From Cordilura impudica (Eukaryota > Arthropoda > Insecta > Diptera > Scathophagidae): a stretch of DNA of 64,000 nucleotides. Shown here piece after piece: positions 8,669 through 53,939 of this stretch. Each line of letters opens with the position of its first letter. Position 1 is the first letter of the stretch. The notes under the pieces are model-generated. The model worked only from the letters and a program-made list of their open reading frames with translations, was not told the origin of the DNA and made no database searches. Where the stretch lies: positions 158,129,056-158,193,055 of the forward strand of contig OY821519.1 of the NCBI GenBank assembly GCA_963682025.1. Reading direction: 5' to 3'. The position numbers were made by a program, and so were the translations under genes.

Positions 8669-8742
8669 GTATGTTATAGAGATATTAACAGCAAATCTAT
8701 AATTTATGTTTATTTCAACTTTAATTTTTCAAATACTTTCAG
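8669..8742 (+). other. Probable leader intron of polymerase gene
   Basis: A consensus donor (CCAG then GTATGT) at 8,669 and an acceptor CTTTCAG ending at 8,742 lie just before the polymerase frame. Splicing them would remove the first in-frame Met at 8,706 and leave the Met at 8,769, directly ahead of the zinc finger. This is prediction only. Confidence 0.45.
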
Positions 8743-8768
8743 AACGTTATTTTAATTTCTGTTGTATT

Positions 8769-11735: not shown

Positions 11736-11758
11736 ATAATGCAGTATACGGAAAAACG

Positions 11759-19726: not shown

Positions 19727-19830
19727 ACAGATTTAATCAAAAATTATAAAAATAAATAAAAATATATAAATGTTTAATACTAAGAATAAATAAATTAAAG
19801 AAAAAGAAAATTTAATAATTGTTATTTCTC

Positions 19831-21087: not shown

Positions 21088-21127
21088 AGACAAAAAGAAT
21101 ATTTAAAATATCATCGAATCTTAGAAA

Positions 21128-21874: not shown

Positions 21875-21881
21875 TTTCTAC

Positions 21882-27489: not shown

Positions 27490-28491
27490 CCTGAGGAAAA
27501 ATTTGGAAAATTTTTAAAAATTATTAATTTCAACATTCCCACAGCCTTCATCTTGTCAACACCAGCAAGAACCTGCAAAAACAACCTTTCGCTGCAACTA
27601 CAATTTACATCAAATTTAAACTAAAGGTGCGTATAGTTCAGTTTTTTTTATGTGTGAGCAAATCAAAAAATTTAAGATTTAAAAAGTGTATAATAAAAAT
27701 TAATTTAAAAATAAAAAAGTTTCATCGTTATTGAAATACTATTTTTTTTTGCATACTTTTCGTTTTACAACCCTACGCGTTACGTTACATTACGTGTATA
27801 TTCTTTACGTGGACGGTGACATTAATTATATCGTGTTTGTTTTAATCGAAAATAAAAAGAAAAAGCCGTCGGGATTTTTAAAAAGTGTTTAGTGCAAGTA
27901 ATAATATAAATAATCATATCGTGTTTGTTTTATTCGAAGGAAAGAGAAAAAGCCGTCGGGATTTTTAAAAAAAGTGTTTAGTGCAAATAATAATAATTTA
28001 AACAGATTTACATTTAAACATAACTAAATCGGTTTTTTTTTCCTTTGTGTTATACATATACGCTCACGCGAACGTTTTTTTTTTTTCGTGTTTAAACTGC
28101 TTAAGCTGAGTAGTTTTTATTTCTCTATACGTTCACGCGTTGGTTTTTTTTGTGTTTATGCTCAAGAGTGTGTTCATTTCTCTTCACACTAATATATACG
28201 CACACGCATTGTGTTGGTTTGTTTTTTCTATAACATTGTTAGTCACCCTACTGTCCGTTTTAGTCGCGACATATCCAGTGTGTTTTTTATTAATTTTTTT
28301 TTTCCAAATTTTGGTTTTGCTTCTAATTTGTTAAAATAATACCACATATTAAGAAAATAAAATTTTTTTTTTAATATAGTTTTATATTATTAGCTTATAA
28401 TATATTATTATTTTTTCGGATTTTTTTTAAACGAATTTTTATATTGTTATTTAAATTAAATTAACTTATTTTAAAATAAATTCGAACCAAA
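27490..28491 (+). other. BEL untranslated leader with internal duplication
   Basis: About 1 kb. A segment of roughly 75 bp at 27,832-27,905 repeats at 27,918-27,990; shared landmarks are CGTGTTTGTTTT, AAAAAGCCGTCGGGATTTTT and AGTGTTTAGTGCAA. Later parts carry repeated CGCTCACGCG-type stretches near 28,060-28,140. No convincing short gene is seen. Confidence 0.7.
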
Positions 28492-31400: not shown

Positions 31401-33765
31401 CGCTCAGTTGGACTCGTTTTATTTTAGTGTGACTCCTATTTCATTAAAATCTGGGTATACTAAGAGGGAAGTCTTATCGACTATCGCGAAATTGTTTGAT
31501 CCTGTAGGTTGGTTAGGTCCTGTAATTGTGGTTGCTAAAATTATCATGCAAGAAATTTGGCTTGATAATATAAATTGGGATGATATGCTTCCAATTTCGA
31601 CGGAAGTTGAATGGAAAAGATTTGTAACTTCTTATCATGAGGTAAATACTATTCGTATTCCAAGATGGGTTAATTATTCGCCGGGAAATTCTGTTGAGCT
31701 TCATGTTTTTTCTGATGCCTCGGAAAAGGCATACGCGGGGGTGATTTATATTCGAATTCAGGTCTCTAACGGCGAAATTCATACTCACCTACTTTCATCG
31801 AAAACCAAAGTAGCCCCCATCAAATCAATTTCTCTACCTCGTTTAGAACTGTGCGGGGCGGTGTCAGCCTCTGAACTTTTGAAGACGGTAATAGGTGAAA
31901 TTGATATTAAAATTGATCAAATTTACTGTTGGACTGATTCGACGATAGTCCTTTCTTGGTTAAGGAAAACGCCGTGTTCCTGGACCACATTTGTAGCGAA
32001 CAGAGTATGCCGCATTCAAGAAAATGTAGGAAACCATAATTGGTATCATGTTTGTTCTGAGGATAATCCTGCAGATTTAGGTAGTCGTGGTACCTCTCCC
32101 AATGAGCTGGAAAATAGTGAGCTTTGGTGGCATGGTCCAAGATGGCTGGGTCAAGATAAAGTGCACTGGAATATAACGGATCTAAGTTATCTTGACACTG
32201 ACATTGAGGGTCGGGTGGTCAAAACTCATGCTTCCTTCTTTACGGACGGTAAGGGGGAAGATATATATGTGGATATTTTGAATAATTACTCTCGTCTTGA
32301 TCGAGCTCTTCGGATAATCTCATATATTTTGAGGTTCTTTTACAATAGTCATCCAGCTCATAGGTCAAATCGTTATATGAATGTGGATAAAATCGTTGCT
32401 GGTTATGAAATCAGAAGAACAAAATTGCATTTAGCCATTGTGGCTCAGAAACATCACTATGCAGATGAATATAAGTGCCTGTTAGACAAAAAACCGTTAA
32501 GTTCAAAGAGTTGCCTTATTTCTTTGAATCCCTTTCTCGACAAAGACGGTGTGATAAGATTGAATGGTCGCTTGGTTAAATCACCATCCCTTTCATATAC
32601 GGAGAAATATCCTATTATTTTACCTTATTCGAGCCGATTTACTCAATTGTTAATAGAATTTGTTCATATGATTTCCATTCACGGTGGAAATCAGTTGATG
32701 TTGCGAATACTGCGCATTGAATATTGGGTTCCACGCTTGAAGTCGAAAATTCGTGGAGTCATTGGTCGTTGTAAACGGTGTATTATTGACCGTAAAGTAT
32801 CTTGTCGTCAAATTATGGCGGCTCTGCCCCCTGAAAGAACTACTCTTACTAGACCATTTATGACAACGGGCGTTGATTTTGCTGGTCCCTTTGACATCAA
32901 AAGTTTCACGGGCAGAGCTTGTAGGATAACGAAGGGCTACGTTTGTATTTTTGTTTGCTTTTCTACGAAAGCAATTCATTTAGAGGCCACGTCTGATTTA
33001 TCGACGCCTACTTTTTTATCTGCCTTTCACAGATTTATTTCTCGACGAGGTTGCCCCTACACTATATTTTCGGATAATGGCACAAATTTTGTAGGTGCAT
33101 CGCGTGAATTAGAGAAGAATTTTAAGATGTTTCTTAAGGAAAGTCAGATTGCAGTGGGTTCTATTTATGGTATTCAGGGTTTAACTTGGCGGTTTATACC
33201 GGCCGGGGCACCTCATATGGGTGGCCTTTGGGAAGCCGGGGTCAAGAGTTTTAAACACCGTTTTCGTAAGGAAGCGCAATCTTTTAAGTATACTTTTGAA
33301 GAATTTTCTTCAGTTCTCGCAAGAATCGAAGCTTGTCTAAATTCACGTCCTCTTTGTTCTATGGCGGATAACCCTCGGGAACCAGTAGCTCTTACTCCTG
33401 GTCATTTTTTAATAGGTGGACCAATACTTGCTCCCCCGGAGCCTGAAATTAATGAATCTCCGATAAGTCTTGTTAATCGATTTCGAAAAATGAAAGCGTT
33501 GTCTCAACTTTTTTGTCGCCGATGGAAAGAAGAATATTTAATGACGTTAAATAAGCGCTATAAATGGAAATATCCGGAACGCGATCTACAGGAAAACGAC
33601 TTAGTCATTATCAAGCATGAAAATCTACCTCCAACATCGTGGCGTTTAGGCCGGGTCATAAAAGTTTATCCGGGAAGTGACGGTCGCGTAAGGGTCGCGG
33701 ATATTCGTACTGCTAATGGGGTTGTAAAACGACCAATAACCAAACTGGTCATTTTGACCGAATAA
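28492..33765 (+). CDS. BEL/Pao Gag-Pol polyprotein, intact
   Basis: 1,757 residues from the first ATG after the leader. Order: Gag with a DUF1759-like capsid region (to about residue 320); zinc knuckles near 336-402 (CVLCKNQ, CCVNCLARTHEAKNC, CSICNKRHH); aspartic protease near 470-620 with the active-site Asp in ALIDPASEASFIS, where the usual Gly is Ala; reverse transcriptase with MYVDDVLTG near 895; RNase H starting VFSDASEKAYAG near 1,070 with WTDSTIVLSW near 1,147 and NPADLGSRG near 1,190; an integrase zinc region near 1,390-1,425; integrase core Asp residues in GVDFAGPF (about 1,459) and SDNGTNFVGA (about 1,525) with the Glu in GGLWEAGVK (about 1,575); and a C-terminal DUF5641-type module. 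All domains of the family are present at normal size. It makes particles and integrates new copies. The protease Ala may be tolerated in this family; I could not check. Confidence 0.97.
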   Translation: MPGTALDIFIRDSDTLIKFEAKFNDIREELHSVFNLEIRGKELDLLWEQVKSTYRTCLSYLGNSDDAEPADFDAAESKYEATFNAYVNCLSRINERLHHFKSNATPKEQSQSPSLNLNSADNFCHNLTLPPCDTDVFEGDYISWPTFRDLFTAVYINNSRLSNIERLCHLVRKTSGEAREIVSKCPLTNQGFDVAWRNLRDAYDNPRMLVNNQLKSLFSLPFLDKETSSGLKTLQRGINGCLTAMSIYNISTHSWDPIIVFLCIQRLPSQTVSLWEQSIKDKSALSLWKDLDLFLTERVQTLDCLRDIRGSESAKRLSEPKIKAHHTNAASTSSASCVLCKNQVHFLRSCHRFKSLSVADRFSTVKKFHCCVNCLARTHEAKNCSSSYNCSICNKRHHTMLHRELPSSEVSRDTNRSNSGVSSVSVSRVSNSVPAIASSSNANHATAPTNRQVFHTAQSRTVLLGTAMVNLIHQGTTYPARALIDPASEASFISERLQNRLKISTHSTNAQISGVNQAVTAMSRKLCSLKIGSTLDSSLVLETLALVLPNISGNLPSFTVHSYLKENLPNLRLADINFDDSRPVDLLLGADLYPRILLGEIRRNILGSLLAQNTIFGWIITGPVVQPQVQVYSTNVEFSEEDCLNKNLLRFWELEETPKRKILSPFDKFCEENYKATTRRESDGRYVVTLPFKPEFPEKFSLGTSRPGVMGQYLRTESSLMRRPEIKEMYDDVVREYLDIGHMRPVLPNFSSPTSFCYLPHHPVVKLERKTTKLRVVFNASNRTSNGISLNDCLYVGPTLQADLVLLILRWRLFKFVFNCDITQMYRQIRVDPSHTPFQRILFRDSPTETVRDYELQTVTFGVNCAPYLAIRTLLQLADDSEAEFPLAAHILRKCMYVDDVLTGTHDISTALMARDQLVAALASAKFQLRKWTSNERSILKDIPLDHLVDAKLLTFIESNTSKTLGIQWNAQLDSFYFSVTPISLKSGYTKREVLSTIAKLFDPVGWLGPVIVVAKIIMQEIWLDNINWDDMLPISTEVEWKRFVTSYHEVNTIRIPRWVNYSPGNSVELHVFSDASEKAYAGVIYIRIQVSNGEIHTHLLSSKTKVAPIKSISLPRLELCGAVSASELLKTVIGEIDIKIDQIYCWTDSTIVLSWLRKTPCSWTTFVANRVCRIQENVGNHNWYHVCSEDNPADLGSRGTSPNELENSELWWHGPRWLGQDKVHWNITDLSYLDTDIEGRVVKTHASFFTDGKGEDIYVDILNNYSRLDRALRIISYILRFFYNSHPAHRSNRYMNVDKIVAGYEIRRTKLHLAIVAQKHHYADEYKCLLDKKPLSSKSCLISLNPFLDKDGVIRLNGRLVKSPSLSYTEKYPIILPYSSRFTQLLIEFVHMISIHGGNQLMLRILRIEYWVPRLKSKIRGVIGRCKRCIIDRKVSCRQIMAALPPERTTLTRPFMTTGVDFAGPFDIKSFTGRACRITKGYVCIFVCFSTKAIHLEATSDLSTPTFLSAFHRFISRRGCPYTIFSDNGTNFVGASRELEKNFKMFLKESQIAVGSIYGIQGLTWRFIPAGAPHMGGLWEAGVKSFKHRFRKEAQSFKYTFEEFSSVLARIEACLNSRPLCSMADNPREPVALTPGHFLIGGPILAPPEPEINESPISLVNRFRKMKALSQLFCRRWKEEYLMTLNKRYKWKYPERDLQENDLVIIKHENLPPTSWRLGRVIKVYPGSDGRVRVADIRTANGVVKRPITKLVILTE

Positions 33766-37880: not shown

Positions 37881-37926
37881 CAATGATCCCGTAACGTGTT
37901 ATGATGTTCACCGCAAAACGCCAACG

Positions 37927-37963
37927 CACAGTGGACCATTTGACGAGAAGGCGGTCAAAAATC
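37927..37963 (+). repeat. Terminal inverted repeat, element A 3' end (RSS-like)
   Basis: Heptamer CACAGTG, 21-bp spacer, then TCAAAAATC, which matches seven of nine positions of the V(D)J nonamer ACAAAAACC. Confidence 0.85.
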
Positions 37964-38596
37964 TATAACTTTTGATTCGATAGGAATTTTGATATGCGGT
38001 TTTTTTTTGTTTGGTAGGTGAGACTTTAGCCTTTAAGTTTTGCTATAAAACGTAATTCTCGATCGAAAATAAAAAAAGTTACGGAGGGTTTAAAATACAT
38101 TTTCATTTGTAACTAGTTGAATTTTAGTACAAAAATGAAGTGTTAAAAGTAAAAAAAGGTTTTTTTTTTAATATGTCTTATTTTTTCAGTTAATTTTACA
38201 GCTAATACTTTTTAAAAATTTTTTAAGTTTTTTTTTCAGAAAATGCCAAACTTTGGCCCCCGTAAACTTTTAGTCCTAATGTGCACAAGGGCCAAAAGTT
38301 GTTTTTTTTTTTTTTTGAAAGATCCCGAGTTAAAATATAATTTATTAAGCAGCGAACGTAACAGTTACCTTATATTGAAAAACTCGTATGTTTTTGCTCT
38401 AGTTAAATTTTTTTTTATTGTCTTTTTAAATATTTCTATATCAATTTTTATGGTAAATTTATGAAATATAACAATTTTTATTGCAAATTTACAAAATATA
38501 TAAATTTTTTAATCAAGAAAAGTTTTTAACTATATAAAAAAAGTGTAACTTAATGTTAGTGTAATGAAAAAGTACTTTAAATCAACCAATTTTAGT

Positions 38597-38991
38597 AAAA
38601 ATTTCTTCTAAATAGCCTTGATTTTCATCTTCTAGAAGTTGTTTAGCTTCTTCGTCTAATTAAATAGAGCTAGTTTTCCATTTTTGACGAATTTTGGACA
38701 TATATGGATCTGAAGTGCACAACAAAATAGTGATAAGGTCTTCATTAGTACAACATCTTGTGTTCCTTTGTTACTTTTTTCTTGCGCTTCTTCAGATAGA
38801 TCTCCTATTGGTAGCATATTGTTTTGAATTATTTGTTCCCCATGGTACAAAATTTTATGAACTGTGGATGGCATATATCTCCAAGAGTATTTTTCATTAT
38901 AAAGTATAGCTGTTTTATTTATTATTATTATTTCTTTATTAATTTCCTGTACAACAACACATGTCTTATAATTAAAGTACAGGATTTTCAT
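38597..38991 (-). pseudogene. RAG1/Transib-like transposase A, C-terminal part
   Basis: The minus strand reads YSWRYMPSTVHKILYHGEQI, then LPIGDLSEEAQEKSNK, which is the region of the third catalytic acid. A small deletion and frame change follow, then LLCTSDPYMSKIRQKW and, after an in-frame TAA, the family's ending (LDEEAKQLL, YLEEIFTKI). It is separated from the rest of the gene by about 5 kb of inserted LINEs. It matches copy B over the same stretch. Confidence 0.8.
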
Positions 38992-39152
38992 CGTTCAAAA
39001 ATTCGCCACAAAATTAAAATATTTACAATAAAAAAAAATGTATAACTTATTTAAAATAAAGTAAAATAAATACAAGAAATTATTAAAATTCATGAATTTA
39101 AAGAAATGAAAATTAAATATATTTAAACAAAGTAACTAAACAAAAATTTCTT

Positions 39153-39668
39153 TTAATGTATCGCGTTGCTTACTAATTGTTGGTTGTATGGAATTGCATT
39201 CCAAAGACGTGTGGCGTTTATGAAAAATTGCCATTCTGACACAAGGCATCGACGCATAGAGATAATAAGTTTTTTGCCCCTTCTGGATCTAGCAAACTGT
39301 ATTTGATCATAAAGATATAGGGGTTTCTCAGTGTAAATAATTTTGTGCAAAAACATTAAAACCCTTATATTAATAAGGTTATCGAATGAGACTCCATAAA
39401 GACTTTTTGAGAAAGTCGAAACGCTATCACGTTTCTTCAGTCCATAAACATATCTAACAATATTGTTGTACAAAATATTTAGTTTTTTCTTGCTGGCGTA
39501 CTCGCAGTTGCCAAAAAGTTCACAGCCATAAAGTAGACCAGGAATTAAGTATGCCTTTGCAAGAAGATGTCTTACTCTTAACGGCGTAAAATACTGAGTT
39601 ACCCAAAGCGATCTTAGCTTTATATACGTTTGAACCACAAGTGTATCTACGTGGCTTGACCAAGTCAA
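39153..39668 (-). pseudogene. LINE 2 C-terminal domain
   Basis: 171 codons continuing the RT protein after a frame break and a short divergent stretch near 39,670-39,750. It holds the post-RT region (YLIPGLLYGCELFG, then a conserved ending around RLWNAIP) seen in jockey-group LINEs. Confidence 0.8.
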
Positions 39669-39747
39669 GTTGTTATTGAAAACTATGCCAAGATTTTTTA
39701 CCTATTTTACAATCTCGATTTTCTGATGGTTTATTAGTATATCATGT

Positions 39748-41535
39748 TCAAGAACAGGCTGAAAAGTTTTTTTTATGAATAATCAAACATTTTGATTTAT
39801 GCGGGTTGAGACAAAGTCGATTTGCAGTGGCCCAAAAATGTATTTTATTAAGGTCATAGTTTAGCTTTTCAACATTTTCTTCTATGGAGCTTACTGGACT
39901 ACTCAGATACAGCTGAACGTCGTCCGCATACATGTGTATTTCGCAGTGAGATAGTTGTGGCAAATCATTGGCATAGACGGAAAAAAGAAGTGGACCCAGA
40001 ATCGATCCTTGAGGTACGCCTCTCGTAAGTGTTACAGGTCTTGAGGTCGAATTATTAACGTATACAGATTGATTCCGATTTGTGAGGTATGAATGTAAAA
40101 GCTGCGTAGAAGTGGATGAAAAGTTAAAAAAGTGTTTTAGCTTCATACATAGTGTTTGATGGTTTACTGTATCGAACGCCTTTGAATGGTCGAGAAGTAC
40201 CAAAAAGTTTATGTTACTACAATCCAGTCTTATGTTCTCGGTTACATTAACCAAAGCTGTAGTACAACTGTGGTTAGAACGAAATCCGGACTGCTTGTCA
40301 GACATTAGTTGATTTTCGTTTATATAATTGCTCATTTGTAGATGCAGTAGTTTTTCCATTACTTTTGATAGAAAGCTTAATATAGCTATTGGGCGATACT
40401 CCGTTTTCGATTTTGGAGTAGGTATTATTTTTGCATATTTCCATTTAGTAGGGAAATAACTTGATGTAATAATGGTGTTAAATAGGTGTGTTATATAAGG
40501 CAATATTAATGGCAAAATGATCTTGATAAACTTGGGATGTAAGTTATCGAAACCCACGGCGTTTGATTTTATTAATGAAAAACTGGATAATACATCAAAC
40601 TGACTAACGCAAGAAAACTCGAATGCAGTTTGTTCAAAAGAGGAGCTATTATTCATAATATTGTTGTTCGAATCTGTACTGTTCACTATTGTCATCGGAA
40701 GATAAGTGAAAATGCTATTAAGTTCGTTTGCGTCAATTGGGCAGCTTTCATTTTTATTATTTTTGCCAATACCAATATCTCCAATGGTTTTCCATGTATC
40801 CTTGGAGTCAATGGTGGATGAAAATCGTTCGGAATAGTAATTAGTTTTAGCCATTCTTATTTTAGAATTAGCCTCACTTCTAGCAGTGCGAAAATCGAGT
40901 TTCAATTCATTCGTTTTGAAACGTTTCCACCGGGAATAAGTAAAATCTCTGCGTTGTATTGATTGCTGAATATCAATTGAAAACCATGGTAAACTCTTTG
41001 TGGTAACTTTTTTCTTTTTTAACGTAACTGTATCATCAAAGAGGCTTAAGATATTACGTTCTAAAAACTCCAACTGATCATCAACAGAAGTCATTTGGTA
41101 TATTTGGTTCCAATTGAATAAGTTGAAATTTTCATACAACAAACTATAGTTAAGATTCTTGTTATCACGATAGGAGAAAAAAATTTGATCTTCTTGGTGG
41201 AGCTGGAAATCATAGGCTAGAAAAACCAGATTATGTTTAGAAAAACTGGAAGCTGAGATTTGATCATACAGCAGGACCTTCGATGGATTAGCGACAAATA
41301 TTAGATCAATCAATGTACTGCTGGACGTTGTAAAGTGTGTTGGTGTTGTAATATTCGTTGGTGTAAGTCCTAATGACTGCATACTATCTTTAAACGACGA
41401 TTCTTTTAGTAGATTCGAATTGAAATCTCCCAAAATTGCTATATCATTGTAAGGCATGGTTAAGATTTCAATTTTGTTCATAAAATCGGCAAAAGGTACA
41501 ACAAATTTGGGTCGGTGAGCACAACCAATCAGCAT
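39748..41535 (-). pseudogene. LINE 2 endonuclease C-terminus and reverse transcriptase
   Basis: 595 open codons. The start shows endonuclease motifs (AILGDFNSNLL and SKHNLVF at the catalytic His). RT motifs follow: YRPIAILSFLSKVMEK, DHSKAFDTVNH, GVPQGSILGPLLF and the catalytic YADD in MYADDVQLY. The first part of the endonuclease is missing; one stop (TAA) stands just upstream of the first Met, in the same frame. RT motifs are intact, but the element cannot be autonomous. Confidence 0.9.
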
Positions 41536-41867
41536 TTTTCTTCCAGATGATGAGATTTAAACAAAAATATACTCAATTCTGTCATTTTCTTCCGCCTTGC
41601 AACGAAAACTACATTTTTTTTTTTATTTATTTATTTATTAGGTCAATGGAATAAATCCTTACAGACCTGTATAAATGATATAATTACATATGTACATATA
41701 TTGAAACAATGAAATGATTTAAAAATAAAAACAAATAGTTAGGAATTTAAGAAAATAATGATATTATGCTTAATTACATCAGTGTTCAACGAAAAATCAA
41801 TTAATTGATAAAGATTATTATAAACACAACAAATTCTTCTAAAAGGATCAGCTAGAGCATAGTTGGT

Positions 41868-43748
41868 TTAAAAATATTTAACAAAGCGTGGTTGGAATTG
41901 GCGTGATACTCGTTGAGGAACATTAAAAGTTATATTGTTGACAAGAAAGTTAGAACAGATTTCACCATTAATTAGGTTGATCATAAATGTTACTTTTAGC
42001 ATAGTCCTACGGCTTTCCAAAGTAGGTAATTTTATTAATTTAAGTCGATCACCGTATGAAGGTAGATTAATTGCAGAATTCCAAGGTAAGCCACGTAAGC
42101 AAAAGAGTAGAAATTGTTTCTGTACAGACTCGATTCGTTGAATATGAATGTTATAGAAGGGATCCCATATTATTGACCCATATTCTAAAATAGGTCTTAC
42201 AACAGATGTAAAAAGTTGTTTGGTTATGTAAGGATCAGTAAATTCTTTTGCCCATCTTTTAATAAAGGCGAGTGTACCTCTAGCTTTATTAACTGTCATG
42301 GTGACGTGAGATACAAAGTTTAATTTAGGATCAAGTAGAATCCCTAAATCCAGAAAAGTATCAACAAGTTCAAGCTGATATCCGCCCAGAAAGTAGTTAG
42401 CAGGAAAAACATTATTTCTAGAAAAACGCATACATTTACATTTTTTCAAATTTAGTTCCATTACGTTACGGTTACACCACGAAAAGAAATTGTTGAGATC
42501 TGATTGAAGATGAATATGATCATTATGTTGACAGTAACTTAAAAAAATTTTAACATCATCAGCGTACATTAAAACGTTGCAAAAATTTATCACTTTTGGA
42601 AGATCATTGATGAAAAGGGAGAAAAGAATTGGTCCAAGATGGCTGCCTTGAGGAATACCAGAAGTCACAGTAATATCTTTAGATGACATATTATTATACA
42701 CTACACGTTGTGTTCTCTCAGAAAGATATGATTTTATCCATTTAAGGCTTAATGGTTTTAAACCTAATAAATCCAATTTGATCAGTAGAAGGTTATGGTT
42801 TACTTTATCGAAAGCCTTACTAAAATCGGTGTATCCTGCATCTGTTTGTTTTTTCTTGACAAAACCATCGTTAATTATTGTCGTAAAATGAAGCACATTT
42901 GTAACGGTAGAGCATCCTTTCCGAAATCCGTGTTGAAATGGTGACAAAATTGACGATGAGTGATAGCACAAAAAATCTGTAATAAATTTTTCGAAAAGCT
43001 TAGGGATTGCACTAAGTTTAGCAATACCACGGTAATTAAAAACATCCGATCTATTTCCAGATTTAAATAATGGAATGATGTAAGAAGCTCTCCAAAATTC
43101 TGGAAAGTAACCGTTTTTTATTGACGCATTAAACAACAGAGTCAGTGGTATTGCCAAGGAAGTAGCACAGAAATTGAGTATAGAACTAGGTACTCCATCA
43201 GGTCCATGAGTAAATGAAACTTTAAGTTTCTTCAGGCTATTAACAAGTTGTGCCTTATCAATTAGGGGAAAAGATATAGCTTGATTTGTGTTTATTGGAT
43301 ATGAATAGCTGTTGGAACAATATTGAACAACAGAATATGTACTAGCAAAAAAGTCTGCAAACATGTTACTTATTATAGTATCATCACTAGATTCGATATC
43401 GTTAAATTTCATTACAGATGGATAAACAGTCGTTTTTCTTTTTGAATTAACAAAGTTGTAAAATGCTTCAGGATCACGATTGAAATCTTCCTTCATTTTG
43501 TTTAGATAGTTTTTGTATAAATAATTGTTAAGAATATTATATTCGGCACGATGAATGGAGTATTTTTCAAAAAATACAAGAGAACCAAAAATTTTATACT
43601 TTTTATAATACTTGTTCTTCAAATTTTTTAATCTTGATAGTTGTTTTGAGTTCCAAGGCGGGCCAGTTCGTAATAGTATTTTTGACGTATATTGCCACTC
43701 CACCTCCTCCTCTTCCACTTCTATTAAACCGAAATACTTTATAACCAT
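41868..43748 (-). pseudogene. LINE 1 reverse transcriptase ORF
   Basis: 626 open codons. Pre-RT region, then YRGIAKLSAIPKLFEK, TDFSKAFDKVNHNLL, SGIPQGSHLGPILFSLF, the catalytic YADD in LMYADDVKIF, and the post-RT thumb with ILEYGSIIWDP. The first ~20 codons are not homologous and come from the deletion joint with the endonuclease part. RT looks whole; without the endonuclease it would depend on other elements. Confidence 0.9.
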
Positions 43749-44010
43749 CTAAGCAAATGAGGCTATCCGGAATAGATTCATCGAGCCATGTTTCAGAAAC
43801 ACACACTACATCAATATTTGATTTTTCGAAAACGAATCTGAACTCATCAATTTTGCACATTAAACTTTGTGCGTTTATGTGGCAGATTTGTACTCCTTTC
43901 TTTTGTTTCGCCAAGATTTTTACCATATTAAACGTCACATCTTTAGAATTTCCACTTATGTTACCAACAATGTTCATTAAAATAAAATTCAAATACTGAA
44001 CTAAAAGCAA
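43603..44010 (-). pseudogene. LINE 1 endonuclease N-terminal part
   Basis: Apurinic-type endonuclease start: ICHINAQSL (catalytic Asn), VVCVSETWLDES (catalytic Glu) and SGRGGGGVAIYVK. It ends abruptly at about 43,680, where the frame passes into the pre-RT region, so the central and C-terminal endonuclease (catalytic Asp/His) has been deleted. Confidence 0.85.
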
Positions 44011-44205
44011 CGCGATATAAAATGAAACTAGTCCAAAAATAAAAGTATGATATTTTAAAAAAATATAAATGAAATAAATGATTTAGGGCATCTAAGCTTT
44101 CAATACAAATTGGCTCATCCGTATGCATTCGTTTGATGTAACTGCTTCGCAAAGAATTTTAAAGTTGCCGTTTGTTAGGTTTTCGTTGATGTAAAAATAT
44201 TGACT

Positions 44206-45801
44206 TATTTCATAAGGATTTTGAATCGTCTTATTAATTCATGATCTACACCTGTGATAGATGCTGCAGTTTCCGGATCGGAAAAAAATCTCCTTGCAGT
44301 ATTTCCATCATTTGTGTTTCCTTCCCCTTGTTTTGGTTGGTCGATTACGAGGCCTAGCTGTAGATATTTTTGTTGAATTTGTTTTTTGCTTTCTTTTTTC
44401 TTAATTTTCTTTGTTTTTTCTCACTGTTTCGCCTAACGGACCAAATTCCAAATCATAACCCAATTTAAGAATATGCTCCATGAAACGTATTCTAGCATGA
44501 AGAGGGGACATTCCAAATTCGTAGGCTTCCTTAAAACTATCGTCTTCTGGTGGGGGTTGGCTTAATTGACTTGATGTCTTTTGGCATATAATGCAGCTTG
44601 ACGTTGACTTTGTTCCAGTTAAAGCCTGTGCAACTTTTCCATCAATCATTGTGAGACACATTTTAAAATGTACTTCAATGTCTTGGTCATCAAATTTAAA
44701 TATTACTGGTTGAAGTTCCTTAATTTGATCTTTTATTTTTTGAGCTTCTTCAGTTATGACATCTTTGGTTTCCTTTTTGAATGCAAATTTTATTGGTCTG
44801 CAATACTCTGTTGAAGAAGGAATTTCATTTTTCAATATATCAATTTCTGTTGCTCTACTAGTTGACGGCTCTAAGACGCTATACCTTTTTGTTAAGCGCA
44901 ATGGAACGAAAGATACCATAAATAAATTGGCATCTGATGAATTTTCGGCATTAAATTGCTTGTATTGTTTCTGACCAGAGGATCCATCACATCCCCATTT
45001 AGAAATTAAAGTAATGCTGTCATTACAATTTTTTTTTTAAATGATCAGTATCAAGCGTATTTAGCAATCGTTCTGCAGTATGTTCAAGGAGATCTTGCAA
45101 TTTTATTTCTGCTGATATTGAAGTGACATTAATAGCAGATTGTGAAGGTAAGCATTCTCTTTTGGCAGAAACTAAATCTGGATACTCTGGAAAAATCCCA
45201 CAATTCTTTTCATTGGTTCGCTTCCGCAATTCCTTATATGGATTTTTGGTCAATTTCAAATCCAAAAATAAGGCGAACGCTTCTTCCGGCGTAAATTTCT
45301 TATCTTCAATTCATGTAGGAATGCTTTTCAAAATCCTCTTTGTGCGCCTTGGGCTCGCTTCTACTAATTTTTCAATTATTTAAATTTTTTTTTTTTTGGG
45401 TTGGTTGAATTTGGTGCAAAAATGAATCCTTAATAATTCTTTGAGAAATTTCTTCATTGATATTCTCCAGCTTGCGCCTTCGAGATCTTTCACTACATCC
45501 GTCAATTGGTTTTGCTGGTCGACCCTTTTTCCACTTTCGTTGGCAGTTGTAGATGCACTCTCAAAAATAAGTTCCTTTATTAACCAGTCTTGCTAACGTT
45601 TGTACATCTTTGCCTTGCTATGAGAGCATTCAATGTACCGTCTTTTCAAATTCGATGCAAAATTAGTAATTTTTCCTTTGTGCATTTCAATGTCTTCTAG
45701 GTTACAATTCTTAAAGAATTCACTATGTGCAAAATTACATCGTCTACATCATTTCGTTGAAAATAAATATCTGCCAGATCTCTGTAACAGTACTTAGCCA
45801 T
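44206..45801 (-). pseudogene. RAG1/Transib-like transposase A, N-terminal and core part
   Basis: The ATG at 45,801 opens a peptide like copy B's (MAKYCYRDLADIYF). Frames then change several times through a basic region (GRPAKPID, RSRRRKLEN) and the first core block. Key points: WGCDGSSGQ near 44,970-45,000, which I align with the first catalytic Asp of RAG1; MIDGKVAQAL then a CIICQ zinc pair near 44,580; SPLHARIRFMEHIL near 44,480, aligned with the second catalytic region but with Arg at the Asp position; and GNTARRFF near 44,300, matching GNxARR of RAG1. It breaks at 44,206 at the LINE insertion and resumes at 38,991. Stops and shifts make it nonfunctional. RAG1 homology is my own motif alignment, from memory. 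Confidence 0.75.
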
Positions 45802-45882
45802 TGCACAAATTGTAATGAATAGTAATTGTGGAAACAATATTATAAATACTCGTTCTTGCAATTATGTAAAATAAAATTTTTT

Positions 45883-46390
45883 ATCTATTATTACCACTTT
45901 TAGAAGCATAAAAACCCACACCCTAACCCCTTTTAAAAGGTGAAGCATACCTGCTCGTATCTTAAGGGGCTATGTCGCAATAGTTTTTTTTTACCATTTA
46001 CAAACTTTTATCTTTTATTACCACTTTTAGAAGCATAAAAAACCCACACCCTAACCCCTTATAAAAGGTGGAGCATACCTGCTCATATCTTAGAGGGCTA
46101 TGTCGCAATAGTTTTTTTACCATTTACAAATTTTTATCTTTTATTACCTCCTTTAGAAGCATAAAAAACCCACACCCTAACCCCTTTTAAAAGGTGAAGC
46201 ATACCTGCTCATATCTTAAAGGGCTATGTCGCAATATTTTTTTTTTACCATTTACAAATTTTTATCTTTTATTACCACTTTTAGAAGTATAAAAAACCCA
46301 CACCCTAACCCCTTTTAAAAGGTGAAGCATATCTGCTCATATATTAAAGGGCTATGTCGCAATAGTTTTTTTTACCATCTACCTGTTATT
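45883..46390 (-). repeat. Four tandem ~127-bp repeats in transposon A 5' region
   Basis: Copies begin TTACCACTTTTAGAAGCATA at about 45,891, 46,018, 46,143 and 46,272. Each contains CCCACACCCTAACCCC, GGTGAAGCATACCTGCTC and GGGCTATGTCGCAATA. Unit lengths are about 127, 125 and 129 bp. Confidence 0.92.
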
Positions 46391-47240
46391 TAAATTGTTT
46401 CCCATTTTGTCAGGTATTTAAACTATATAACTCTAATTCAGACTATTAATATTTTTGAAAGATACCTATGTAAATGTACCTGTAACAATTAAGCGCATTA
46501 TATCTCAACCCTTTTTTATAAGTATATAACAACTCCTGACAACTCTACCGACACGCAAAAAAATACACCGCGGTGCACCGGTACGACCAACTTTTGTATT
46601 CATAACACTCAGTCGGACGGACGGACATCGTTTAATCGACTCAGAAAGTGTTTTTGAGTCGATCCGTATAATAGAAGATGGATAAAGGTCCAATATTTTT
46701 GGCAGTTACAAACATCACCTCAAACTTAATATATCCTAACCACATAGTGGACAACTTTTGTATTCATAAATTTTGCAAAAAAATATCTAACATTGGGTCA
46801 GAAAAATTGTTCTGATGCACACGGGCGGAAACTGGCGGGTGTATAATGGGGTATAGAAGTATAGGGGAGGGTTCGGACTATAGAAGAGTGCAAGATTTTT
46901 TCTGACTGCTTTTGACTGGCAGGAGTTATAAAAAAATTTTTTTTTTAAATTTCGGAATGACTCAGTGATTTTACATTTTTAACATTAATAGCATGGAAGC
47001 CACAAAATTATACAAAATTTATTTCACTCCAAAATCTTTTAAATCAAATAAGTTACAGTCATTCAAAAATAAAAATTTTAAAAGAAATTTTTAATTTTAG
47101 CAAAATACTGAGAAAGCCCATTTTCGAAGACCCTGTTCGCTGTGATATAGTTGAGATAGAGTCGCAATTTTTTGGCTCCCGAGGTTTACTAGTATTTACT
47201 TTCAAATGAATAACATAACTTCAAAATCGGTAACAAAAAA
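46391..47240 (-). other. Transposon A 5' untranslated and subterminal sequence
   Basis: AT-rich and noncoding. It contains a stretch GGACGGACGGACATCG like the fly interspersed repeats, and blocks shared with the 5' end of element B in opposite orientation. Confidence 0.55.
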
Positions 47241-47247
47241 AAAAAAT

Positions 47248-47284
47248 GATTTTTGCCCGCCTTCTCAAAATATGGTCCACTGTG
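47248..47284 (-). repeat. Terminal inverted repeat, element A 5' end (RSS-like)
   Basis: Complement begins CACAGTGGACCATATTTTGA. The nonamer-like GCAAAAATC starts at the same position 29 as in the other ends. Confidence 0.85.
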
Positions 47285-47760
47285 CGATGGACAGTATGAG
47301 TACTTGCGAGTATCATATGGGTTGAAAAATCGCCCTGCTATATTCCGTTTCGTAAATAATGTCTTACGAGACCTAATAGCTGCCGGACTAGTTGTTTATA
47401 TATATACGACATTCTTATCGCATCTCCTGATTTTTCATCTCACTTGAATTCAGTTATTGAAGCGGTTAAAAAAATTGCGATCATTCGGTTTTGAGTTTAA
47501 CCTGAAAAAGTGCAAGTTTGCTCAATTTGAATTAGAATATTTAGGTTTTCGTGGAAATTCTTCTGGTATCCTTCCTAGCAATCGCCATATCCAAGCTATT
47601 CAGCAATATCCTATGCCCAAGAACCACAAACAATTGCAAGCATGCCTTGGACTTTTCTCATTCTTCCGTCGATTTGTGCCTTCATTTTCAAAAATCGCTC
47701 ACCCCTTAACACAACTTCTGCCTTCAGCTGATAGCGATATAAAATACAACCATGAGCTTC
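47285..47760 (+). pseudogene. Gypsy reverse transcriptase fragment between transposons A and B
   Basis: It opens exactly at the transposon end with DGQYEYLRVSYGLKNRPAIF, the middle of a gypsy RT. It passes the YxDD region, where a frame change destroys the motif, and continues as FNLKKCKFAQFELEYLGF and QACLGLFSFFRRFV. It ends near 47,760. Since the fragment begins right at the transposon boundary, A probably inserted into this gypsy copy. Confidence 0.8.
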
Positions 47761-49167
47761 GCCGTGATGTCAGATTTGACATATGGCAAAAACTTCCACT
47801 TCCGTTTTGACATCCAAAAGAAAGACAGATACATGTTGTAAATTGAGAACTTTTGTTTTAATAAAATTAAAATTTTCAAGCTTTCATACGTGGCTATAAA
47901 ATAAAAATTATGGACACAAAAAAACGAGATACTTGGTGTATAATTGCCATAAAAAAAATTCACAAGATACAACAAAAATATATTAAAAGACTATAAATAT
48001 AAATATTTGGATTTGACTTCTCAAAACGCGCAAAAAATATATCTTTTAAACTTGGTAAAGTTAAAAATTTTAAAATTGTAGGCTTTTATTTTTATCTTTA
48101 TTAAAACTTTTCTCGTTAATGCCATTAAAAAAAAAAGGTTGAAAAAAATTGACACATAAGACGTACGAATTACAATATAAATTCTATACAAATATTCCAA
48201 AAATAATACAATCACAATTGGTGAAGTTTTCGGGATGCGTAAGTGGGTGTGTGTGTGTGGACTCAGCGGTTTTATGTGTGCCTATTAAATAGCCCTCTTA
48301 CTGTTCTTCAACCAAAAATTACTTTACACAAAATGAACAAATAAAAATTTCTCTATCTGTGTTTTTCCATATCGGTGCATTATTCATCCAATGGAATTTT
48401 CACGTTATCGGAAAATCAGATAAACTTTATTGAAATTCCTGACTTCGAAACTGTTCCGAACGGATATCTGAAAGTCTATCCGATCGACAGATATTTTTAT
48501 CAAATAATTAAAATGGATCAGAAACTACATTTAACATTAAAACTTTCGACAATCACCCTACCAATGAAACATTTAACAAAAAAAAAAAAAAATAATTGCC
48601 AATTGTACTGTTTAAAAACGAATACCTTTGTTTCCAGTTTCCTCTGTTTTGAATCTATACACAAAACTAAGATTTGATCTTGATTTGGGCTTTACAGGCT
48701 TATAGGATCCAAAACTTTGGAAAACTTGAAACAAAAGCATCTATCATTAGGATATTTCGAAATTTTAGTTGGCTATTGTCAGTATATTTTGATCTACTAG
48801 CCCCAGAAAACTTGGCAGCACTCCTACGATACACTATTGTAACTATGCATTTTACGATTAATTCGCACCATTTCTACACATTCACTCGCTAAAACACGCT
48901 ACATAAAAAAATACAGATCAAAAAATAAAAATAAATCCACAGCATCAAACATAAATCACAACTACCACGTACACTCAAAAAAGTACATTAAGGGGTAAGG
49001 TTTTAAAAGCGAAAAAAGACGTATTTTCATAATTTTTTTTACGATATGAATAATGTTGGATTATTTATTTCATATACACGTTATAGCATAACATTTGAAG
49101 AATATTAGAAAACATTTTCAATTAAAAATTTTAATATGTCCGTGGCAGTGAATCTCCGGAGGCGTTG
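47761..49167. other. Unassigned sequence between the two transposons
   Basis: AT-rich. Short frames at 48,375-48,677 and 48,674-48,892 show no motif. It may include more of the decayed gypsy. Confidence 0.4.
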
Positions 49168-49204
49168 CACTGTGGTCAATATTTTGAGATAGCGGCCAAA
49201 ACTC
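49168..49204 (+). repeat. Terminal inverted repeat, element B 5' end (RSS-like)
   Basis: Heptamer CACTGTG, then the nonamer-like CCAAAACTC from position 29. The heptamer has T where the other three ends have A; both fit the Transib consensus CACWRTG. Confidence 0.85.
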
Positions 49205-49879
49205 CTTTTGGTTTTTGTTCTCCGATTTTAAAGTTATTAGACTCATATGAAAGTAGACAGTAGTAAACCTCGGGAGCCAAAAAATTAGAACTCTATTTCA
49301 ACTATTTCACTGAGAACAGGGTGGTCCAAAATGGGCTTTTTCAGAATTTAGTAAATTTATGATATTTTTAGTTAATTTTTAAAGTTTAAATGATCATAAC
49401 TTTTTTGTTTTTCAAGATTTTTGGACGAGATAAATTTTGTGTTGTAACTTAACTTATTGAAGCTGTACTGTTTTCAGAACAATTTAAATTTTTTTTTTAA
49501 AAAAGGTAAAATTTCTCGGAAATTTCCTACTTCATAGAGTACAACTCCTGTGAGTCAAAACACGAATTTACTATTTTGTAGTCCTAACTCTCCCCTACAT
49601 TCTTATATATACATGTCCATGCATCGGGACTGCACTTTTTGAGCTCCAGCAATTTTTCTGACCCAAGGTAAGATTTTCGGTACAAATGCACGTCATATTT
49701 TTTGAGAAGTTATTTGTATGTGAAAGTGGCTATTATGCATATATTTTGATGAAATTTTGTACAAGAGTTCTTATTGGCCCAAAAAATAATTCTGTTGAAA
49801 TTAGGAGAAGTTGGCCCATATTTGGACCTAGTCCACATAGAAGGGTGTACCAAATTTTGACAAAAATGACAATGGAACG

Positions 49880-50215
49880 CTCAAATTATGTGGTATCTGG
49901 CAATTCATTTGGAAAAGGTAAAAAAGATTTTATTGCCATCTAATATTACACAACTTAAATACGTGAAAATTGCAACTAAATTTAAAACCAATGGAAATAA
50001 CTGGTAAAACCAAGTATCTTTTATATTATTGCCAGTACCTGTTAACTCTCAAATTATGTGGTATCTAGCAATTCATTTGGAAAAGGTAAAAAAGATTTTA
50101 TTGCCATCTAATATTACACAACTTAAATACGTGAAAATTGCAAATAAATTTAAAACCAATGGAAATAACTGGTAAAACCAACTACCTGTTATATTATGTT
50201 TCAAAGAGGTAAAAA
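49880..50215 (+). repeat. Two tandem ~168-bp repeats in transposon B leader
   Basis: 49,880-50,047 and 50,048-50,215 are nearly identical (start CTCAAATTATGTGGTATCT). They sit just before the transposase ATG, in the position of the unrelated 127-bp repeats of A. Confidence 0.92.
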
Positions 50216-50290
50216 AGATCATGTTGAAACATCGAGCAATAGTATATTAATCCATGCATTCATTTTTTTTTCTTCATTATTGTTTAAACA

Positions 50291-52298
50291 ATGGCTAAAT
50301 TCAGTTATAGTGTTCTATCTGATATATATTTTGAACGGAAAGATGAAAACGATATTATTTTACATATAATGAATGATCCATTCTTTAAAATATGCGACAA
50401 ACAAGAAATTAAAATTCATAACTTAAAAATAAAAAAGTTTTTAAATACTTTAAGAAAACGGTACAATCAATGTTCCAGAAACAAGAAATTGTTTTACTCA
50501 CGCAACCAAGAATGGCTAAGAAATAAACTTATTTTTAAAAAGCCATCAGTAACTACCACGGAAACTGGAAAAGGTGGTCGACCAGCAAAGCCAATTGATA
50601 ATTGTAGTGAAAGATCACGAAGACGCAAGCTTAAACATATCAATGAAGAAGTTTCTTGTAGCATCATAAAGGATTCATTTCTGCATAAAATTCAACCATC
50701 GAAAACTAAAAAGGGTAAAATTGCTATCATTGAAAAAATAGTGGAAGCAAGCCCCAGACGCACAAAAAGGATTTTAGAAAGTATGCCGACACCAACTGAA
50801 GAAAATAAATTTACTCCAGAAGAAGCATTTGCACTATTTTTGGATTTGAAAATGACTAAAAACCAATATACAGAATTGCGGAAGCGAACCAATGAAAAAA
50901 TTGTGGAATTTTTCCATCATATCGAGATATAGTTTCTGCCAAAAAAGATTGCTTACCTTCACCAACTGCTATTAGTGTAACTTCAAGTTCAGCAGAAATA
51001 AAATTGCAGGATCTTCTTGAACACACTGCAGAACGATTATTAAAGACATTTGATGCTGACTATTTAAATAAGTTTAAAAATTGCAGCATGACTTTAATTT
51101 CTAAATGGGGATGTGATGGGTCCTCTGGCCAGAAACAATACAAACAATGTAATGCGGAAAATTCATCAGATGCCAATTTATTCATGATTTCTTTCGTTCC
51201 ATTACGTTTAACAAAAACTTATATTGGCTCAGAGCCGTCAACTAGTAGAGCTGCAGAGATAGATGTATGGAAGAATGAAATTCCCTCGTCAACAAAATTT
51301 TGTAGACCAATAAAGTTTGCTTACAAAAAGGAGACTCAAGATGTCATAGATGAAGAAGTCGAAAAATAAATGATCAAATTAAAGAACTTTAACCAGTAAC
51401 ATTTAAATTTGATGACCAAGACATTGAAGTAAATTTTAAAATGTGTCTCACAATGATTGATGGAAAAGTTGCACAAGCTTTAACCAAAACAAAGTCATCG
51501 TCAAGCTGCACCATATGCCAAAAAACATCAAGTCAATTGAGCCAACCACCAACACAAGACGATAGTTTTAATGAAGCATATGAATTTGGAATGTCACCTC
51601 TTCATGCTAGAATTCGTTTTATGGAGCATATTCTTAAATTGGGATACGATTTGGAAACAACAAAGAAAATTTGGAAAAAAGAAAGCAAAAAAAAAAAGAT
51701 ATTCAAGAAAAATACCGTGAGATAGGCCTTATAATTGACCAGCCAAAGCAAGGAGAAGGAAATTCTAATGATGGAAACACAGCAAGGAGATTTTTTTCCG
51801 ATCCAGAAACTGCAGCTTCTATAACTGGAGTAGATTATGATTTAATACGACGATTCCAAATCATATTACAAGTTATAGCATGTAGCAAAAAGATAGATGC
51901 AAAAAAATTTGGTCAGTATGCTAATGAGACAGCAACCCTTTATAACCAAAAATATTCTTGGAGACATATGCCAACCACAGTTCACAAAATTTTGTTCCAT
52001 GGGGAACAAATAATTCAGCACAATATGCTTCCAATTGGAGATCTCTCAGAAGAAGCGCAAGAAAAAAGGAACAAAGACTACAGATTCTTTCGCGAGCACA
52101 ATACAAGAAAAATTTCCAGATATTGTACTAATGAATATCTTATTAATATTTTGTTGTGCACATCAGACCCATATATGTATGTCCAGTATTCGACAAAAAT
52201 GGAAATCAACCTCATTAGAGTTAGATGAAGAAGCTAAACAACTACTGCAAAATGAAAATCAAAGCTATTTGGAAGAAATTTTTACTAATATTGTTTAA
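50291..52298 (+). pseudogene. RAG1/Transib-like transposase B
   Basis: The ATG at 50,291 starts 213 open codons: an N-terminal domain (MAKFSYSVLSDIYFERKDEN), a basic GGRPAKPID / RSRRRK segment like a nuclear localisation or DNA-contact patch, and a helical part. Frames change near 50,920, at 51,369 (with one further stop), near 51,690 and near 52,180. Core motifs: WGCDGSSGQ (about 51,105-51,130), MIDGKVAQAL and CTICQKT (51,450-51,520), SPLHARIRFMEHIL (51,595-51,635), GNTARRFF (51,775), MPTTVHKILFHGEQI, LPIGDLSEEAQEKRNK (52,028-52,075) with FFREHNTRK, then the end at 52,298. These follow the RAG1 core order CDG, CxxC, LHxD, GNxARR, SExxExxNK. The LHxD Asp is Arg here. Alternative: a lineage that lost canonical chemistry, or a different DDE family with convergent motifs. 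Confidence 0.78.
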
Positions 52299-52867
52299 TT
52301 AATACTAGTTTAAAGATTACAATTTGTTTCTAATTTTAGTATAAATTTTTATTAATACATTTAAATAAAATATATGTGCACTTTAAATCAATAGTAAAAG
52401 TTTACTTAAAATTTTATCGATGTTGTGTTCTGTATATAATATATCCAAATGGTATTGATATTGTTGGGAATTTCAGTGTTATTTTTCAGTTTAATCCTCA
52501 CAAGAATTAGCTTTCTTCCAAAAAAACCAACCTTTGGCCCCTGTGAATATTGAGACTAAATAAATGTCAGGGGCCAAATGTTGGCATTTTCTGACCAAAA
52601 TTAAGTTTAGGAATAATAAATAAGTATTGTTTGTAAAATACGATTGAAGAAAATAAGAAATTATAAAAAAAATACCTATTTAAAATGTCAAAATATTCAA
52701 CTTTTACATGGAAACTCAACAAAAAATTAAAATGCATTTTTAACTCCAAATTACTTACGTTCCTATCAGTCGATTTTTACGTTTGAACACGCAAATTGAA
52801 GCTTAAAGTCCCTCCTATTGCACAAAACAAATTGCGTAAAAAAATACCAATTTGGTCAAAAGTTATA

Positions 52868-52904
52868 GAGTTTTGACCGCTATCTCGCGAAATTGACCAC
52901 TGTG
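52868..52904 (-). repeat. Terminal inverted repeat, element B 3' end (RSS-like)
   Basis: Complement reads CACAGTG, 21-bp spacer, TCAAAACTC. CGCCG follows on the right. Confidence 0.85.
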
Positions 52905-53220
52905 CGCCGGTTGATGGTGTTGGCAGTGCGATGGCACTGGCAGGCAGATGGCGGCACCGTGGGTGGCTTGGTGTGCCGGCTGATGATATCAGGAGTGCGG
53001 TGATACTGGTCGACAGATGGCGGCACAGTAGATGGCCTGGCACGACTATGCTAGCAGGCAGATGGCTTAGATGCGCCGATTGATGATTTCGGCGTTGTGT
53101 TGACACTGGCAGACAGGTGGCGGCACAGTAGATGGCGGGCATACAGGTAGTCGGCGGTGCGACCGGTCGGGAGAGCGTCAGCAGCCGGCAGAAGGCGGTG
53201 GTGCGACTAGAGTTGCTGTC
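52905..53220 (+). repeat. GC-rich degenerate tandem repeat
   Basis: Repeats of elements such as GGCAG(G/A)CAGATGGCGGCAC, TGATG(A/G)T and ACTGGCAG at roughly 70-80 bp. GC content is far above the surroundings. Confidence 0.7.
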
Positions 53221-53292
53221 GTGAGCTGTGCTGTGTCTTGGCCACCTGTAATGATAAGAGCGGGGTTAGCCGGGAGCAGTCAGCATAGGTCG

Positions 53293-53721
53293 CTGGATTA
53301 TCGAGAGCAGTCAGCCGTTAAGCCGCTGGATTATCGGGAGCAGTCAGCCGTTAAGCCGCTGGATTATCGAGAGCAGTCAGCCGTTAAGCCGCTGGATTAT
53401 CGGGAGCTGTCAGCCGTTAAGCCGCTGGATTATCGGGAGCAGTCAGCCGTGAAGCCGCTGGATTATCGGGAGCAGTCAGCCGTGAAGCCGCTGGATTATC
53501 GGGAGCAGTTAGCCGTGAAGCCGCTGGATTATCGGGAGCAGTCAGCCGTGAAGCCGCTGGATTATCGGGAGCAGTCAGCCGTTAAGCCGCTGGATTATCG
53601 GGAGCAGTCAGTCGTGAAGCCGCTGGATTATCGGGAGCAGTCAGCCGTTAAGCCGCTGGATTATTGGGAGCAGTCAGCCGTTAAGCTGCTGGATTATCGG
53701 GAGCAGTCAGCCGTTAAGCCG
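53293..53721 (+). repeat. 33-bp minisatellite, 13 units
   Basis: Unit CTGGATTATCGGGAGCAGTC then AGCCGTTAAGCCG, thirteen in a row with few changes (GTTAAG/GTGAAG, CGAGAG/CGGGAG). Because 33 is divisible by three, it stays open and encodes LDYREQSAVKP repeats within a 172-codon frame (53,221-53,739). There are no unique spacers between units. Confidence 0.95.
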
Positions 53722-53939
53722 CTGGATTTATATGGATGACAACCGGTACCGATCGTCTTTAAAAGATTGGAGATATCTTGTAGTAAGATACACCACTCAG
53801 CTTTAGCGCCGAAAACTGACTTGCCATCCTCAGACCAACCTTGCCTTCTTATGTAAATAAATTTGTAAACTCAGTGAGAATTCAAAATACCCTTTGCTTT
53901 AACCACTTGAAAAACTATTTTTAGCAGGCAGAAGTGTAG

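What the first reader, a model, noticed from the sequence alone, without database searches (positions are those of the whole stretch)
37927..52904. Head-to-head pair of RAG1/Transib-like transposons whose ends are V(D)J-type recombination signals
Seen: four ends (37,927; 47,284; 49,168; 52,904) carry CACAGTG or CACTGTG plus an A-rich nonamer-like block starting at position 29 in every case, with shared GAGANRGCGG between. Both elements encode the same transposase. Known: Transib elements have CACWRTG ends and are related to the RAG1 recombinase, whose signal is CACAGTG, a 12 or 23 bp spacer and ACAAAAACC. Inferred: these are diverged RAG1-family transposons with a nearly complete RSS-like architecture, spacer 21 bp. 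The family differs from the Transib proteins I know, so it may be an undescribed lineage.
Basis: partly seen in the sequence, partly recalled or inferred. Interest (0 to 1): 0.88.

Follow-up and report, generated by a model that had tools for sequence, protein, structure and literature searches.

The report
Transib pair rearranged through swapped ends
Two Transib jumping genes, whose enzyme is related to the RAG1 enzyme that shuffles antibody genes, lie head to head, and one end of each abuts a complementary half of the same kind of short repeat, likely because a single jump took one end from each element and flipped the DNA between them.

Summary
Four ends (37,927; 47,284; 49,168; 52,904) carry CACAGTG/CACTGTG, a 21-bp spacer and an A-rich block. 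The elements are Transib transposons: transposase pieces match HzTransib (E down to 2.9e-52) and RAG1 only weakly; a relative's model matches HzTransib first, RAG1 second. In the host genome, 16 of 18 two-ended B copies have perfect 5-bp GC-rich target duplications. Symmetric Transib ends with 20-22-bp spacers are published, so the RSS-like architecture is ordinary; spacers are 21/21, not 12/23, and the nonamer match is modest.

The unexpected part is the arrangement. Neither window element has its own duplication. The flanks of A's 3' end and B's 5' end are complementary halves of a ~215-bp repeat, each with the same CAACG; uninterrupted copies hold it once at that site (12 of 12 read). A and B show no switch of type. 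Best explanation, inferred: reversed-ends transposition, known for maize Ac/Ds. One transposase would have paired A's 3' end with B's 5' end and inserted both nearby, inverting A and its neighbour. Four searches showed me no report of this for Transib or RAG1.

The parts
37927..47284 (-). Transib element A (9,358 bp with nested insertions), 5' end at 47284, 3' end at 37927
   Evidence: TIRs at both ends; closer to A-type references in 15 of 15 segments compared
49168..52904 (+). Transib element B (3,737 bp), 5' end at 49168
   Evidence: TIRs; closer to B-type references in 14 of 14 segments compared; genomic copies
37927..37963 (+). A 3' end: CACAGTG, 21-bp spacer, TCAAAAATC
47248..47284 (-). 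A 5' end: CACAGTG, 21-bp spacer, GCAAAAATC
49168..49204 (+). B 5' end: CACTGTG, 21-bp spacer, CCAAAACTC
   Evidence: same 37 bp in 18 of 20 copies read
52868..52904 (-). B 3' end: CACAGTG, 21-bp spacer, TCAAAACTC
   Evidence: same 37 bp in 14 of 18 3' ends read
50288..52298 (+). B transposase gene, broken by frameshifts; catalytic motifs at 51106-51120 (WGCDG), 51450-51467 (TMIDGK), 52049-52066 (EEAQEK)
50576..50584 (+). GRP motif at the start of the predicted nonamer-binding-like domain
44404..45310 (-). A transposase, central part (WGCDG 44983-44997, TMIDGK 44635-44652)
38659..38994 (-). A transposase, C-terminal part (EEAQEK 38776-38793)
38920..44216 (-). nested non-LTR retrotransposon sequence inside A (two reverse transcriptase genes)
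37883..37926 (+). left half of short repeat R, ending in CAACG (37922-37926), abutting A's 3' end
48992..49167 (-). right half of repeat R, with the second CAACG (CGTTG on + at 49163-49167), abutting B's 5' end
47285..47721 (+). gypsy retrotransposon fragment beside A's 5' end, starting with CGATG (47285-47289)
   Evidence: continuous across this point in 5 of 5 other gypsy loci read, 2 with CGATG and 3 with TGATG
47908..48799 (.). dispersed repeat between the gypsy piece and the R half
52905..53104 (+). satellite repeat beside B's 3' end, starting with CGCCG (52905-52909)
   Evidence: continuous across this point in 3 of 3 other loci read, 2 with CGCCG and 1 with GGCCG

Best explanation
Elements A (37,927-47,284) and B (49,168-52,904) are two diverged families of Transib transposons, and their head-to-head layout is likely the product of one reversed-ends transposition, in which a transposase would have paired A's 3' end with B's 5' end and inserted both at one CAACG site in a short repeat. 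Shown: ends, transposase kinship, 5-bp GC-rich duplications of other copies, complementary halves of the same repeat with the same 5-mer at exactly these two ends, no duplication at either element taken alone, no A/B switch along either element. Inferred: before the event the order was R-left, R-right, repeat, gypsy, A (5' to 3'), lost DNA, B (5' to 3'), satellite. The transposase cut at the facing ends (A 3' and B 5'), the DNA between was sealed off and lost, and the two ends attacked R 1.9 kb away: A's 3' end joined R-left and B's 5' end joined R-right. That inverts A with the 1.9 kb and leaves gypsy and satellite flanks unpaired, as seen. Cleavage chemistry (hairpin on the flank, blunt transposon end) is taken from HzTransib and RAG (PMC6941560, passage).
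For: Transib: HzTransib matches E 7.7e-26, 8.6e-33, 2.9e-52; RAG1 at best 0.056; model of relative P0002: HzTransib E 9.6e-39, TM to target 0.90, then RAG1 E 1.4e-20, Hermes 0.014. Copies: 16 of 18 two-ended B copies have perfect 5-bp duplications, 92.5% GC, C at position 1 in 16 of 16. Joint site: A's left flank and the complement of B's left flank share CAACG and align as one stretch to L056; joined, they hit a dispersed repeat, 39 of 40 scored matches (of 981 candidates) running across the junction; the 12 of these 39 that I read carry CAACG once at the site and align better to one 5-mer than to two. Of 63 distinct Transib-end flanks in 72 loci only these two match the repeat (scores 70, 50; next 20). 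The other two flanks are continuous target sequence elsewhere: gypsy in 5 of 5 loci, satellite in 3 of 3. Segments of A are closer to A references in 15 of 15 and of B to B references in 14 of 14 (tandem repeats and the nested insert left out). Pairing is feasible: copy L040 has a B-type 5' end, an A-type 3' end and a perfect duplication. [quoted passage not shown]
Against: That both halves come from one copy of R is inferred: the site reads CAACG in the 12 copies read, so identical 5-mers are not independent proof. L040 shows that A/B hybrid elements exist, so a hybrid inserted at R followed by two separate recombinations could give the same flanks. 2 of 18 other B copies also lack a duplication (L025, L030), so discordant flanks are not unique; L025 lies five bases from an A-type element. 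The assembly was not checked against reads. The lost circle and the pre-event order cannot be seen. The paralogue L056 differs from the window right at the site.
Confidence: 0.7

Rival explanations
1. A hybrid Transib with a B-type 5' end and an A-type 3' end (like L040) inserted normally at R; later recombination with an A copy in gypsy and a B copy in satellite produced today's A and B.
For: L040 is such a hybrid, with duplication CGACG. Families are repetitive enough to recombine.
Against: Needs at least two further recombinations, or one with a reciprocal hybrid (A-type 5' end, B-type 3' end). Whether such reciprocal hybrids exist was not tested: full copies were picked by their B-type 5' end. 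A and B show no switch of type along the segments compared, but exchange within one family would not show.
Confidence: 0.15
2. A composite transposon bounded by A's 3' end and B's 5' end inserted at R, and a later unrelated inversion produced the present order.
For: Also explains the shared CAACG and the two R halves.
Against: Needs a second event with a breakpoint inside the 1.9-kb inner segment; that segment is a string of repeats, so such a breakpoint could be hidden, but nothing calls for it.
Confidence: 0.1
3. Two independent ordinary insertions, each later scrambled; both happen to sit at the same site of two copies of R.
For: R has about 981 candidate copies; CG-rich 5-mers are preferred targets.
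Against: 0 of the 61 other Transib-end flanks lie in R; each element would need its own rearrangement; the halves are complementary and 11 kb apart.
Confidence: 0.05

Closest known systems
HzTransib (Helicoverpa zea Transib; PDB 6pqn, 6pqx and others)
   Same: RAG1-like DDE transposase core, 42% identity in the fold alignment of relative P0002; the literature gives 5-bp, GC-biased duplications for Transib and RSS-like heptamers (PMC8289069, PMC7204232, passages)
   Different: The PDB chain starts about 166 residues into this family's protein, which has an N-terminal part with a GRP motif; HzTransib ends are said to have little or no nonamer similarity (PMC8289069, passage), these have 6-7 of 9
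Transib families with symmetric ends, 20-22-bp spacers (PMC8355894, figure legend)
   Same: Heptamer, 21-bp spacer, nonamer-like block at both ends
Vertebrate RAG1 and V(D)J recombination signals
   Different: Spacers 21/21 instead of 12/23; no RAG2-like frame seen; far weaker sequence match than to HzTransib
[quoted passage not shown]
   Same: 3' end of one element and 5' end of a neighbour share one target duplication; flanking inversions are among the reported products; inter-element DNA is joined into a circle in the model
   Different: hAT elements, 8-bp duplications, events isolated de novo; here Transib, 5 bp, two families about 80% alike, seen as a fossil

Membership tests
Transib | RAG1-like DDE transposase, closer to HzTransib than to RAG1 | tested here: met
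   motifs; DDE triad of HzTransib from PMC6941560 passage
Transib | Terminal repeats starting with an RSS-like heptamer | tested here: met
Transib | 5-bp GC-rich target site duplications | tested here: met
   16 of 18 two-ended B copies; not at the window copies taken singly; for the A family only 5' flanks were read
Transib | Single gene, no RAG2-like partner | tested here: met
   By frames only: in B, L021 and L033 the frames of 90 aa or more are transposase, one of 93 aa (B, L021) and one of 122 aa antisense to the transposase (L021, L033); no RAG2 profile was run
RAGL transposon (RAG1L plus RAG2L) | Convergent RAG2L gene in the element | tested here: not met
   by frames
V(D)J recombination signal | 12/23 spacer pair | tested here: not met
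   21 and 21 bp at both ends of both elements
V(D)J recombination signal | Nonamer ACAAAAACC | tested here: inconclusive
   6-7 of 9 at a fixed place; random 90-mers reach 6/9 in 9.3%
RAG1 nonamer-binding domain | GRP motif and NBD fold | tested here: inconclusive
Reversed-ends transposition | Ends of two elements share one target duplication and one empty site | tested here: met
   same-copy origin of the halves inferred
Reversed-ends transposition | Other two ends keep only one copy of their own target | tested here: met
   gypsy and satellite flanks continuous elsewhere
Reversed-ends transposition | Inter-element DNA lost as a circle, transposase causes the event | not testable with these tools
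   historical event

The most novel reading that the evidence does not exclude
RAG1-superfamily transposases perform alternative transposition in nature: a Transib enzyme synapsed the 3' signal of one element with the 5' signal of another family about 20% diverged, cut both, and reinserted them, inverting a chromosome segment. This would make Transib a maker of inversions and would show recombination-signal pairing across families without any 12/23 rule.
Probability: 0.62. Interest if true: 0.65.

Novelty: new member of a known kind. Interest (0 to 1): 0.48.

Why it matters
The elements add a family with many near-identical ends to Transib: 28 copies (window included) score the maximum over 253 bp of 5' end, and 1 of 20 copies read in full keeps an open stretch of 678 codons with all three catalytic motifs. 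The arrangement, if read correctly, extends reversed-ends transposition from hAT elements to the RAG1 superfamily, where it bears on how signal ends are paired and on how such enzymes rearrange chromosomes. It is testable with an enzyme already studied in vitro (HzTransib).

Tried and rejected
Rejected: another DDE superfamily (Hermes ranks far below, E 0.014); chance ends; simple mutated duplications: with each element alone the flanks differ by two transitions (CAACG/CGATG, CGTTG/CGCCG), and I first took this for CpG decay, but the flanks are different sequences (R, gypsy, satellite), so decay is not the reason. Homologous inversion between A and B: would leave A/B chimeras, none seen in the segments compared. 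Left nothing useful: viral-contig scan (no relative), Rfam and tRNA scans, Pfam RAG1 on pieces (best 5e-4, under the curated cut-off), Foldseek on the N-terminal model (no hit at 0.001). dN/dS of A against B is 0.20 over 354 codons, but one of six aligned stretches (25 codons) looks out of frame. The tree has no RAG1 and is rooted at the midpoint. Host identity was not established; six long contigs and 1.49 Gb would suit a large-genome fly (recalled, not tested).
Full report
What was claimed and checked. The four ends are exactly at the stated places; a 28-base pattern that I wrote from them (3 mismatches allowed) occurs only at these four places in the window and in none of 100 shuffles. Positions 1-7 are the heptamer, 8-28 a spacer with shared blocks, 29-37 an A-rich block; 5'/3' identity inside each element drops after position 37.

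What the elements are. Pieces of both broken transposases match HzTransib in the PDB with E 7.7e-26, 8.6e-33 and 2.9e-52; RAG1 appears only at E 0.056 and above. A search with B's joined pieces found 518 proteins, 120 listed; the best, P0001, is 92% identical over 69% of the query and ends near B's frame break; P0002-P0007 are 51-55% identical over the whole length. In a tree of 78 rows (query plus 77 of the 120 listed, those shorter than 450 residues and others left out) the query groups with P0001-P0007 (100% SH-aLRT), apart from P0052, a Helicoverpa protein whose source name begins 'V(D)J recombination-activat'. A model of relative P0002 matches HzTransib best (E 9.6e-39), then RAG1 (1.4e-20), with Hermes at 0.014. 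The three catalytic motifs are present in both copies. The A and B genes differ mostly at silent sites (dN/dS 0.20 over 354 codons, one of six stretches probably out of frame), as expected if both lineages had working enzymes.

The families in the genome. The host assembly has 1.486 Gb in 855 contigs. B's first 253 bp gave 1200 candidates, 40 scored, 28 of them (window included) at the maximal score. I read 20 of the 39 other scored copies in full: 18 have both ends, and 16 of these have a perfect 5-bp duplication, all starting with C, 92.5% GC. L025 and L030 have both ends but no duplication; L026 and L029 show no 3' end. L025's 3' end lies five bases from an A-type element. One of 20, L033, has an open stretch of 678 codons with all three motifs; L021 has 646. 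L040 has a B-type 5' end and an A-type 3' end, with duplication CGACG. The A family looks older: 40 of 118 candidates scored, 94-100% identical at the 5' end; A-type 3' ends are more numerous, 513 candidates.

The odd arrangement. Neither window element has a duplication: A is flanked by CAACG and CGATG, B by CGTTG and CGCCG. A's right flank is gypsy sequence that runs on without a break in 5 of 5 other loci read (2 with CGATG, 3 with TGATG), so A probably once inserted there; B's right flank is satellite, likewise continuous in 3 of 3 loci read (2 CGCCG, 1 GGCCG). A's left flank and the complement of B's left flank both carry CAACG and align as one continuous stretch to locus L056 (371 of 462 columns). 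Joined with one CAACG, they hit a dispersed ~215-bp repeat R: 981 candidates, 40 scored, 39 running across the junction at 86-92% and the fortieth the window's own B-side half. In the 12 of those 39 that I read, CAACG occurs once at the site and the one-5-mer alignment scores better, 12 of 12. Among 63 distinct Transib-end flanks in 72 loci, the four of the window included, only A's 3' flank and B's 5' flank match R. Segments of A are closer to A-type references in 15 of 15 and of B to B-type references in 14 of 14 (tandem repeats and nested insert left out), so homologous exchange between A and B probably did not create this.

Mechanism. These facts fit one reversed-ends transposition. In maize Ac this reaction uses the 3' end of one element and the 5' end of a neighbour, joins the DNA between them into a circle, inserts both ends at a new site with a shared duplication, and can produce inversions (PMC3744419, passages). 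Applied here: R-left, R-right, repeat, gypsy, A, lost DNA, B, satellite becomes R-left, A inverted, gypsy, repeat, R-right inverted, B, satellite, which is the window. L040 shows that an A-type 3' end and a B-type 5' end can be moved as a pair. Weak points: the same-copy origin of the R halves is inferred, hybrids such as L040 permit a longer recombination route, reciprocal hybrids were not looked for, and no reads were available.

Known or new. Transib ends with symmetric 20-22-bp spacers, 5-bp GC-biased duplications and the kinship with RAG1 are published (PMC8355894, PMC8289069, PMC7204232, passages). For alternative transposition in Transib or RAG1 I ran searches; they returned 2, 0, 15 and 0 papers. 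I read passages in one of the two and two of the fifteen (PMC9834309, PMC12974806, PMC6620893) and saw no such report; the rest I saw only as listings. The library is open-access only, so this is not proof of absence.

Verdict. The finding is real and its interpretation largely right, but the RSS-like ends are normal for Transib. The likely reversed-ends event is the part worth following.

Noticed in passing
3443-4795 and 6815-8164: Two ORFs are repeated with nearly the same protein sequence in opposite orientation, next to a long two-frame ORF (8703-12526) that looks like a family B DNA polymerase (recalled; no Pfam hit at 1e-5 for its first part).
   Followed up: no
12380-12940: A perfect 280-bp tandem duplication at the end of the polymerase-like ORF.
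   Followed up: no
L040 (whole locus): Hybrid Transib with B-type 5' end and A-type 3' end and a perfect duplication CGACG.
   Followed up: partly
L025, L037, L070; shorter traces at L020/L026 and L024: Transib copies separated from another Transib end by only five bases, suggesting that the CG-rich duplication itself is a favoured target.
   Followed up: partly
L033: The only one of 20 B copies read in full with a whole transposase frame has a changed 5' heptamer, CCCTGTG.
   Followed up: no
49168-49174 and family copies: The B family has CACTGTG at the 5' end (18 of 20) and CACAGTG at the 3' end (18 of 18); the two differ only in the central base of a near-palindrome.
   Followed up: partly
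45878-46382 and 49876-50197: A and B carry different tandem repeats in their 5' non-coding part (128-bp and 168-bp units).
   Followed up: no
19819-24731 and 28480-33765: Long open gypsy and BEL/Pao retrotransposon frames.
   Followed up: no
53271-53728: About 14 copies of a 33-bp unit that stays open in frame.
   Followed up: no
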